A stretch of 64,000 nucleotides of DNA from Halostella salina (GTDB taxonomy: Archaea; Halobacteriota; Halobacteria; Halobacteriales; Natronoarchaeaceae), in the NCBI RefSeq assembly GCF_003675855.1, contig NZ_RCIH01000005.1, positions 248,001 through 312,000 on the forward strand, in the 5' to 3' direction. Of this stretch, positions 1,870-63,377 are shown in pieces (within the stretch, counting starts at the first letter, position 1; every line of letters starts with the position of its first letter). The notes under the pieces were generated by a model. It worked only from the letters and a program-made list of their open reading frames with translations, was not told the origin of the DNA and did not search any database. The position numbers were made by a program, and so were the translations under genes.

Positions 1870-2030
1870 TTCCCAACGGGGCCGGATACCGCCGTCACGA
1901 CGGCTCTCCGGCGCGTTGTCGGCCGGGGCGCGGCGATCGTGGCCGCCGATCCCACCGCCGCCTGCCGACTTTCGGGTGAGTGTTTCCCCTCGCCACGGCG
2001 CTCAGATGATAGTATAGCTCTCAATAGCCG

Positions 2031-2059
2031 TTGAGCAAAGAAATATAATATTTGTTCAA
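2031..2059 (+). promoter_or_regulatory. Inverted repeat bracketing the TATA box of the aldehyde dehydrogenase at 2105
   Basis: The arms TTGAGCAAA (2031-2039) and TTTGTTCAA (2051-2059) are inverted copies matching at 8 of 9 positions. The 11-bp spacer contains the TATA-like AATATAATA. A protein bound here would sit on the TBP site. A second, smaller inverted repeat (CTCAA/TTGAG, 2020-2024 and 2031-2035) overlaps the left arm. The predicted transcription start is near 2073, leaving about a 30-nt leader. The operator role is inferred. Confidence 0.55.
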
Positions 2060-2104
2060 TTAACTATATGGCTTGTCACGTTCCAAGGTACCGCTGCACA
2101 CACC

Positions 2105-61705: not shown

Positions 61706-61923
61706 GGGTCGGGCTTCGCAGGCCCGTGGCAAAAGCGCCTCGGTACGGAGTCGGTCGTAGTCCGTCCCGTTTTGGGGATATCCGCATCGTCGGCCGCTTC
61801 GCCGTTTCGTTGCGATCCGGAACGCGGCAGATCGATACGGTACCGGCCCCATCACACCGACCACGAACGACGTATCCGATTCCTTTAGAGTCAGTTATAT
61901 TATTAGCTATTCCTCAAAACTTT

Positions 61924-61934
61924 TTTATTTATAT
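61924..61934 (+). promoter_or_regulatory. TATA box of the halocin-like gene
   Basis: The T-rich TTTATTTATAT run, centred about 24 bp before the ATG at 61954, is the strongest TATA-like element in the window. It lies within an unusually AT-rich 80 bp (61880-61955). Leaderless transcription is expected. Confidence 0.65.
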
Positions 61935-61953
61935 GCTCTAGCTATAACTTGCA

Positions 61954-62754
61954 ATGGAAGAAAACTCATCTAAAAACAGGAGAAACGTCCTCAAATCGAT
62001 CGGTGCCGGTATCGGTGCCACCGGATTCGCCGGACTCGGTGCCGCCAGCGACGACGACGGCACGACGGATCAGACCGTCGACGTACACACCGAGACCCTG
62101 AGTGCGAAGGAGACGAACGCGTACTTCGGGCAGGCCCAGCGGACCGAGACCACGCGAGCGCTGAAGGAGTTCCTTCGGGAGGAGGGCCTCCACGCCGACC
62201 GGACCCGCCTGACCGGCACCCGGGTCAACGCGGACTTCGTCTCGGAACACGTCTCGCTCAAGGCGCCCTTCCAGTCGAGCGAAGACACGACCGAGGGCTA
62301 TCTCGACCTGCGTGTGTTCGACGACAGTGCCGTCACGGCGAAGGCGTATGTCGACGGGACGGTCTACGTCGCCGACCGCTTCACGCTCCGCAGCGACGGC
62401 GCGGACGTGATGACCGAACTCGACCGGGAGCAGTTGACCCAGTCGGCGGTCAGCACACAGGTCACCCGTAACTGCAGCGCTACGTACACGTTCAACGGCG
62501 ACGGCTACGGCTGTAAGATCCTGCAGGGGCTCGCTGCCGTCGGGGCGTCCGTGCTGATGCTCGTCCCCGAACCGTCCTCGACCGCGATCGGCACGGTCGC
62601 ACTCACGGGCATCCTCGGCGGTGGCTGTACGCTCTTCGAGGCCGTGAACAAGTACTTCGACGACTGCGACGTGGGGAAGCTCCGGCTCTGTGTCGTCCAG
62701 CCCTGTACGATCTGTACCCCGTCGCTGTATCTCTACCCCGTCGACTGCGCCTGA
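61954..62754 (+). CDS. Halocin C8-like Tat-exported precursor
   Basis: 266 residues. Arg9-Arg10 in KNRRNVLKSIGAGIGATGFA form a Tat-type signal with a short hydrophobic core. Residues about 35-170 are an acidic, protein-like middle. From residue 174 the C-terminus has eight Cys (174, 187, 225, 238, 246, 251, 254, 265) around a hydrophobic stretch (LAAVGASVLMLVPEPSS). The layout (Tat leader, long acidic middle, Cys-rich tail) matches halocin C8 precursors, whose tail is the antimicrobial peptide and whose middle gives immunity. Mature halocin C8 has ten Cys, so this would be a divergent relative. A strong promoter precedes it. Confidence 0.7.
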   Translation: MEENSSKNRRNVLKSIGAGIGATGFAGLGAASDDDGTTDQTVDVHTETLSAKETNAYFGQAQRTETTRALKEFLREEGLHADRTRLTGTRVNADFVSEHVSLKAPFQSSEDTTEGYLDLRVFDDSAVTAKAYVDGTVYVADRFTLRSDGADVMTELDREQLTQSAVSTQVTRNCSATYTFNGDGYGCKILQGLAAVGASVLMLVPEPSSTAIGTVALTGILGGGCTLFEAVNKYFDDCDVGKLRLCVVQPCTICTPSLYLYPVDCA

Positions 62755-62830
62755 CTCGTCAGCCGACGAACCGCATCCTCCCTAATACTGTCGTAACAAA
62801 ACGGACCGAAACCCGCTCAAACCCCGCGAA

Positions 62831-63043
62831 ATGAACTACCCCAAGACGGACACTCGATCCATGGAACGGTACAGACTGGCACTGTTGTTGATACTCGTCG
62901 GCGTCGGCCTAGAGAGTCTGACCACGCTCGCCGCCAACGCGGTCGGCGAACAGGGAGCGTTCCTCGAATCACCGCTCGTCACCGGCCTGGCAGGAGTGAT
63001 CGTAGTCGCCGGAGGTGGGCTTCTCCTCTGGGACCTCCTCTAG
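62831..63043 (+). CDS. Small two-helix membrane protein beside the halocin-like gene
   Basis: 70 residues: a short charged leader (MNYPKTDTRSMERYR), a first helix (LALLLILVGVGLESLTTLAA), a loop and a second helix (LVTGLAGVIVVAGGGLLLWD). It follows the halocin-like gene by 76 bp on the same strand. By position it could be an immunity or export helper; that is inference, and no family is recognised. A start at the internal ATG 62861 is also possible. Confidence 0.6.
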   Translation: MNYPKTDTRSMERYRLALLLILVGVGLESLTTLAANAVGEQGAFLESPLVTGLAGVIVVAGGGLLLWDLL

Positions 63044-63377
63044 TAGGCCTCCCCGGCCCCGAGCGGTCACCGATTTTCGGCTTCGATCCCGCGCCCGGAC
63101 GGTGAGCTTTGCGTTCCCGACTCGGGTCGGGCCTGTCCGTTGCTTGCCACCTATCCTGCCTGTCTCTCCCGAGTCGACTCAGTGGCCCCCTCGCCGCCGG
63201 ACGTTCACCGACCGTGCGAAAGTACGGGTGATACGCAGCACGGACGACTGCGACGCCGGCCGTTCATGCTTGCACCGTCGTTCCCGAACCCCGTCCGCAC
63301 GAGTCCGCCCGCCCGGAAGTGTGCATATGCCTGCACATGGAAAGGCATTAATCAGGCGTGTCTGTACAGAGAAGTGA
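63044..63377. other. Intergenic region upstream of purL
   Basis: About 330 bp without a gene I can support. The right end holds the purL promoter and a palindrome (63319-63352). The rest (63044-63300) has no clear repeat. Confidence 0.6.
63319..63336. promoter_or_regulatory. Palindrome upstream of the purL TATA box
   Basis: TGTGCA-TATGCC-TGCACA is a perfect 6-bp inverted repeat with a 6-bp spacer. It ends 8 bp before CATTAATC (63345-63352), the candidate TATA box, which lies about 29 bp before the ATG. The layout suits a purine-responsive operator, an inference. Confidence 0.5.

What the first reader, a model, noticed from the sequence alone, without database searches (positions are those of the whole stretch)
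61880..63043. Halocin C8-like Tat precursor with a strong AT-rich promoter and an adjacent two-helix membrane protein
The 266-residue precursor has a Tat-type twin-Arg leader (Arg9-Arg10) and an eight-Cys C-terminal tail, the layout of halocin C8 precursors. It has two Cys fewer than halocin C8, so the disulfide pattern would be new. The upstream 80 bp are far more AT-rich than the rest of the window. A two-helix membrane protein follows. If real, this is a secreted microhalocin locus in an otherwise core region.
Basis: partly seen in the sequence, partly recalled or inferred. Interest (0 to 1): 0.8.

Follow-up and report, generated by a model that had tools for sequence, protein, structure and literature searches.

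The report
Halocin-type precursor with membrane immunity partner
A salt-loving archaeon carries a small inserted two-gene unit that probably makes a secreted, cysteine-bridged toxin against rival archaea, built on the secretion and self-protection part of a known toxin (halocin C8) but with a different toxin end and its own membrane protein that probably protects the producer.

Summary
Window 61954-62754 encodes a 266-aa Tat precursor with 8 Cys in its tail; the 80 bp upstream are the most AT-rich in the window; a 2-TM ORF follows. The halocin C8 reading is half right. Residues 45-140 are homologous to, and predicted to share the fold of, the HalI (immunity) half of the halocin C8 precursor. 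The Cys tail shows no detectable similarity to halocin C8 (hhalign probability below 0.1%; no TIGR04449 hit). I found a small haloarchaeal family of 8 loci with this tail. Its closest member (Natronolimnohabitans sp. A-GB9) keeps all 8 Cys at identical spacing at about 40% identity. Seven of 8 loci have a 53-70 aa 2-TM ORF directly downstream, against 1 of 247 random genes (p = 5e-12). The 2-TM gene also occurs alone in six genomes with no precursor nearby, and survives beside a decayed precursor. The two genes form a ~1.6-kb insertion between a PHP-domain gene and purL that is absent from all four congeners. Best explanation: a mobile, minimal halocin-type cassette of Tat-exported HalI-like pro-domain, new disulfide-rich toxin tail and 2-TM immunity protein. 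Antimicrobial activity, processing and immunity are inferred, not shown.

The parts
61745..63331 (.). inserted two-gene cassette between a PHP-domain gene (minus strand) and purL (plus strand)
   Evidence: blastn to four congeners jumps from window 61744 (61755 in one) to 63332; they have about 45-75 bp there
61891..61953 (+). AT-rich promoter region; TATA-like TTTATATG at 61928-61935, consistent with a leaderless transcript
   Evidence: lowest GC in window; upstream 90 bp also AT-rich (26-39% GC) in the family members checked
61954..62754 (+). 266-aa halocin-type precursor gene
   Evidence: homologues
61954..62055 (+). Tat-type leader, residues 1-34 (RR at 9-10)
   Evidence: sequence; low confidence in the model
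62083..62448 (+). HalI-like pro-domain, residues 44-165 (strand, helix-loop-helix 51-76, five strands, helix)
   Evidence: hhalign to halocin C8 pro-domains; matching secondary structure in two AF2 models
62449..62472 (+). low-confidence linker, residues 166-173 (AVSTQVTRN region), probable processing region
   Evidence: pLDDT below 50 at 167-171; the cleavage itself is inferred
62473..62751 (+). Cys-rich tail, residues 174-266, putative mature toxin (about 10 kDa)
   Evidence: 8 Cys spaced 13-38-13-8-5-3-11, identical in L071
62512..62628 (+). hydrophobic segment - PEPSST turn - hydrophobic segment between Cys187 and Cys225
   Evidence: hydropathy; LxxxPEPxSTA motif conserved in the family except L005
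62831..63043 (+). 2-TM membrane protein, 70 aa (or 60 aa from 62861), putative immunity protein
   Evidence: conserved linkage in 7 of 8 loci; orphan copies

Best explanation
The locus is a horizontally acquired, minimal halocin-type bacteriocin cassette. A strong AT-rich promoter drives a precursor exported by the Tat pathway. Its pro-domain, homologous to the HalI half of the halocin C8 precursor, probably holds the tail inactive and may give some self-protection. A protease cuts near residues 166-173 and releases a Cys-rich peptide of about 95-100 residues, with up to four disulfides and a hydrophobic hairpin (segment-PEPSST-segment) that I expect to act on the membrane of related archaea. 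The downstream 2-TM protein sits in the producer's membrane and gives immunity. Shown here: gene structure, pro-domain homology, a distinct tail family with conserved Cys, conserved linkage to the 2-TM gene, orphan 2-TM copies, and the empty site in congeners. Inferred: promoter strength, export, cleavage, disulfide pairing, toxicity, membrane target and immunity.
For: Pro-domain homology: hhalign probability 91-95% (score 45-53) against halocin C8-type pro-domains; with only loci found independently through TIGR04449, probability 66%, score 35, E = 5.7e-5, against a column-shuffle maximum of 13. AF2 models of this precursor and of halocin C8 have the same element order in the pro-domain. Tail family: 8 loci; the closest relative keeps all 8 Cys at identical spacing. 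Linkage: 7 of 8 loci against 1 of 247 random genes, Fisher p = 5e-12. Immunity-like behaviour: orphan 2-TM genes in six genomes with no precursor in the fetched flanks, about 4-8 kb each side; G244 keeps an intact 2-TM gene overlapping a precursor reduced to a tail remnant; dN/dS about 0.24 between two orphans. Mobility: empty site in four congeners, no purL or PHP match at the other loci. The halocin C8 precursor is exported by Tat and cut into HalI and toxin (PMC11509114).
Against: No activity data. The tail resembles no known toxin by sequence, and the whole model matches no PDB or viral fold. L002 has no same-strand 2-TM partner, only a convergent 3-TM ORF. The HalI half of the halocin C8 precursor is itself the immunity factor, so a second immunity protein is not strictly needed. 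Homology among the 2-TM proteins rests on short hydrophobic sequences (14-28% identity to the window copy). The family is small and rare.
Confidence: 0.62

Rival explanations
1. Same halocin-type precursor, but immunity lies in cis in the HalI-like pro-domain, as in halocin C8; the 2-TM protein is an accessory (export, processing or membrane anchoring of the pro-domain).
For: The best-conserved part shared with halocin C8 is the strand-helix-loop-helix region, and a helix-loop-helix motif is reported as essential for HalI immunity (title of Mei et al. 2008, cited in PMC11509114). Most typical halocin C8 loci examined lack a small same-strand TM gene.
Against: Orphan 2-TM genes in genomes without a precursor nearby are hard to explain for an accessory; so is the intact 2-TM gene beside a decayed precursor in G244.
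Confidence: 0.2
2. The secreted protein is not a toxin but a Tat-exported Cys-rich surface or signalling protein with a dedicated membrane partner.
For: No activity known; tail matches no toxin family; no known fold.
Against: Homology to the halocin C8 precursor, patchy distribution, two-gene insertion, orphan partner genes.
Confidence: 0.13
3. The tail is a very divergent true halocin C8 homologue that sequence methods miss.
For: Same place after a homologous pro-domain, Cys-rich, hydrophobic hairpin in a similar position (sequence).
Against: hhalign probability 0.04-0.08%, score at or below shuffled controls; predicted tail is mixed helix/strand while the (low-confidence) halocin C8 tail is all helix.
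Confidence: 0.05

Closest known systems
Halocin C8 precursor ProC8/HalI (NCBIfam TIGR04449 tail)
   Same: Tat-type leader; homologous pro-domain with the same predicted element order; Cys-rich hydrophobic C-terminal tail; toxin and pro-domain in one gene
   Different: tail not detectably homologous (8 Cys, PEPSSTA hairpin, mixed helix/strand prediction); conserved downstream 2-TM gene; no TIGR04449 match
Halocin H4 (activated by halolysin HlyR4; PMC12893001)
   Same: secreted precursor whose C-terminal part is the active fragment after proteolysis, as proposed here
   Different: no sequence comparison made here; protease for this family unknown
Bacterial bacteriocins with small membrane immunity proteins (own knowledge, not tested)
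   Same: small hydrophobic immunity-like protein encoded next to the toxin, with orphan copies elsewhere
   Different: no sequence relation tested; different export route
Polymorphic toxin systems (own knowledge, not tested as a family)
   Same: constant N-terminal trafficking part with varying C-terminal toxin parts, each with its own partner
   Different: small disulfide-rich peptides exported by Tat, not large toxins

Membership tests
Halocin C8 family (TIGR04449) | halocin C8-like Cys domain at the C-terminus | tested here: not met
   no TIGR04449 hit for the window protein or the four members scanned; whole-genome TIGR04449 search gives none in the window's genome; hhalign probability below 0.1%
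Halocin C8 family (TIGR04449) | HalI-like pro-domain | tested here: met
Halocin C8 family (TIGR04449) | Tat export | tested here: inconclusive
   clear twin-Arg motif RRNVLK and hydrophobic stretch; Pfam TAT model weak; no dedicated Tat predictor available
Halocin C8 family (TIGR04449) | ten Cys in the mature peptide | tested here: not met
   eight Cys, different spacing
Halocins (functional class) | inhibits growth of other haloarchaea | not testable with these tools
   needs an assay
Halocins (functional class) | proteolytic release of the active part | not testable with these tools
   flexible linker 167-171 only suggests a site
Toxin-immunity pair | partner gene conserved next to the toxin gene | tested here: met
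   7 of 8 loci versus 1 of 247 random genes
Toxin-immunity pair | orphan partner genes where the toxin is absent | tested here: met
   six genomes
Toxin-immunity pair | partner protects from the toxin | not testable with these tools
   needs an assay

The most novel reading that the evidence does not exclude
Haloarchaea use a modular, polymorphic microhalocin system: one HalI-like Tat-exported pro-domain is combined with many unrelated disulfide-rich toxin tails, and tails that have left the halocin C8 type carry their own small membrane immunity gene, which also spreads alone as a resistance gene. The present tail plus 2-TM pair is one such new toxin type.
Probability: 0.4. Interest if true: 0.75.

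Novelty: new variant of a known kind. Interest (0 to 1): 0.55.

Why it matters
Few archaeal peptide toxins are known at sequence level, and halocin C8 is the best-described precursor of this kind; its immunity is encoded in the same protein. A family that keeps the pro-domain but has a different toxin tail and adds a separate immunity candidate gives new peptides and a simple two-gene test of how archaeal toxin immunity works and evolves. The orphan genes predict which species should resist which producer.

Tried and rejected
Tail as halocin C8 homologue: rejected by profile comparison and shuffles. Known family by Pfam, NCBIfam, PHROGs, PADLOC: none. Known fold in PDB or viral models, or solved relative: none. 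Plasmid and viral carriers: none found. The motif PEPxSTA as a family signature by itself: rejected, because unrelated small membrane proteins and large proteins also have it. Weak hits at the Tat leader only (matches of residues 3-40) were ignored as signal-peptide noise. Hits L072 and L073 in the tail search were rejected as members: a large protein sharing only the hairpin, and a low-complexity match. Terminal repeats at the window insertion: none evident. The main survey of archaeal antimicrobial peptides (Makarova et al. 2019, mBio 10:e00715-19) and Mei et al. 2008 could not be read, so prior cataloguing of this family is not excluded.

Full report
What is there. The window ORF at 61954-62754 encodes 266 residues with Arg9-Arg10 in a Tat-like leader and eight Cys, all between residues 174 and 265. 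It is the only one of 143 ORFs of 150 aa or more in the window with a twin-Arg start and eight Cys in the last 100 residues. The 80 bp at 61891-61970 are the lowest-GC stretch of the 64 kb (27.5%), and the 90 bp upstream of the start have 32% GC, below the lowest of 62 other genes sampled in the same genome (35.6%; median 66%). The upstream region is AT-rich (26-39% GC) in the six relatives checked. A second ORF, 62831-63043, encodes a two-helix membrane protein; the ATG at 62861 fits the alignment with relatives better.

The insertion. Against all four available congeners the window aligns up to about 61744 and again from 63332, while they have only about 45-75 bp between the PHP-domain gene and purL. 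The two genes and their promoter are thus almost the whole of a roughly 1.6-kb segment. Because four of four congeners lack it and the other family members lie at sites without purL or this PHP gene, gain by transfer is more likely than loss. No repeats mark the ends in the window, but the G203 locus has transposase-like ORFs near it and the orphan 2-TM gene of G087 lies next to a transposase.

The family. Searches of up to 391 genomes of the class, plus the taxonomic family of one hit, gave eight loci with the same tail: the window (G000), G419 (L071), G058 (L002), G154 (L005), G203 (L007), G185 (L042), G144 (L043, frame broken) and G244 (L004, pro-region lost, tail remnant) (reading frames). 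G419 is Natronolimnohabitans sp. A-GB9. Its precursor has all eight Cys at exactly the spacing of the window protein (13-38-13-8-5-3-11) at about 40% identity. More distant intact members keep six or more Cys and, except L005, the LxxxPEPxS-A turn between two hydrophobic segments.

Relation to halocin C8. The profile of the pro-domain (after the Tat leader, before the tail) matches that of halocin C8-type precursors with 91-95% probability. Because some of those precursors were found with my own query, I repeated it with only the eight loci that TIGR04449 itself found: probability 66%, score 35, E = 5.7e-5, against at most 13 in 60 column-shuffled controls. AF2 models of the window precursor (pTM 0.70) and of the halocin C8 precursor (pTM 0.58) show the same order in this region: strand, two 12-residue helices, five strands, then a helix. 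The tails behave differently: hhalign probability 0.04-0.08%, scores at or below shuffled controls, no TIGR04449 match. So the pro-domain is shared and the tail is not detectably related. The halocin C8 model has low confidence in its tail, so the contrast in tail fold is only suggestive. Neither the PDB nor the viral library has a match to the whole model, and no solved relative was found by sequence.

The membrane partner. In seven of eight loci an ORF of 53-70 aa with two predicted TM helices follows on the same strand, starting between 4 bp before and 112 bp after the precursor's stop. Among 247 gene-like ORFs from the window and random stretches of the same genomes, one has such a neighbour (Fisher p = 5e-12). 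With a looser rule (any strand, up to 160 aa, within 250 bp) it is 8 of 8 against 13 of 244. A profile of the 2-TM proteins finds paired copies again and further ones in G087, G113, G230, G308, G112 and G268; these have no precursor in the flanks fetched (about 4-8 kb each side) by ORF inspection, tblastn or tail profile. The two orphans G308 and G112 are 79% identical with dN/dS about 0.24, so they are maintained; for the other orphans I have no equally clean pair. The G087 orphan is 97% identical to the G185 partner. In G244 the precursor has decayed but the 2-TM gene is intact and overlaps the remnant by 4 bp. Loss of the toxin with retention of the partner, and free-standing partners, are what an immunity gene is expected to show and are awkward for an export or processing helper.

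How it probably works. Published work on halocin C8, as summarised in PMC11509114, has a Tat-exported precursor cut into the immunity part HalI and a 76-residue toxin; its protease is still unidentified, while halocin H4 is cut by the extracellular protease HlyR4 (PMC12893001). By analogy the present precursor would be exported, cut in the flexible stretch 166-173, and release an acidic peptide of about 10 kDa with up to four disulfides and a hydrophobic hairpin closed at its base by Cys187 and Cys225 (position from sequence; the pairing is inferred). A hairpin of this kind suggests a membrane target. The 2-TM protein would protect the producer's membrane. Only the anatomy, homology, linkage and distribution are shown.

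Wider picture. Similar N-termini precede several other Cys-rich tails in haloarchaea. Of 32 such precursors of other types, 14 have a small membrane ORF at the 3' side (background 13 of 244, p = 3e-8), but typical halocin C8 loci mostly do not have one on the same strand. This fits a modular system in which halocin C8 relies on HalI while other tails bring their own protector. That is a hypothesis; many of the weaker N-terminal hits are Tat leaders only, and the 32 are not phylogenetically independent.

Verdict. The locus is a new variant of a known kind: halocin C8-type pro-domain, unrelated tail, separate immunity candidate. I could not read the 2019 survey of archaeal antimicrobial peptides, so earlier listing of this family cannot be excluded.

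Noticed in passing
L003, L009, L014, L020, L021, L044, L053, L057, L058, L059, L062, L063, L065: Many haloarchaeal Tat-type precursors with HalI-like or similar N-termini and quite different Cys-rich tails; L062 has two in tandem. Looks like a polymorphic system.
   Followed up: partly
L008:2592-3050, L013:343-789: Two precursors with another Cys tail type are each followed by a ~150-aa two-TM protein that looks by eye like a bacterial PH-domain (YdbS-like) protein; possible partner of that tail type.
   Followed up: no
L047:2022-2831, L048:2012-2821, L050:2004-2813, L052:333-1223: Halocin C8 genes in several genomes are preceded by a conserved ~270-aa winged-helix-looking protein; a possible regulator.
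   Followed up: no
L072 (G391, 1764-codon frame) and L028:1450-2514 (G214): Large proteins carrying the same hydrophobic hairpin with PEPxS turn; L028 has a weak Ntox35 toxin match at its C-terminus (E = 5.6e-4, below the Pfam cut-off), suggesting polymorphic toxins.
   Followed up: partly
L088, L089, L091, L092: Unrelated small haloarchaeal membrane proteins with a LFLIPEPATSAxG-like turn between two helices; the PEP motif is a common hairpin turn, not a family mark.
   Followed up: partly
L101 (G087): Orphan 2-TM gene, 97% identical to the G185 partner, next to a transposase gene where the precursor would be.
   Followed up: partly
window 1991-2100: Second AT-rich stretch of the window (about 34% GC over 80 bp); not examined.
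   Followed up: no
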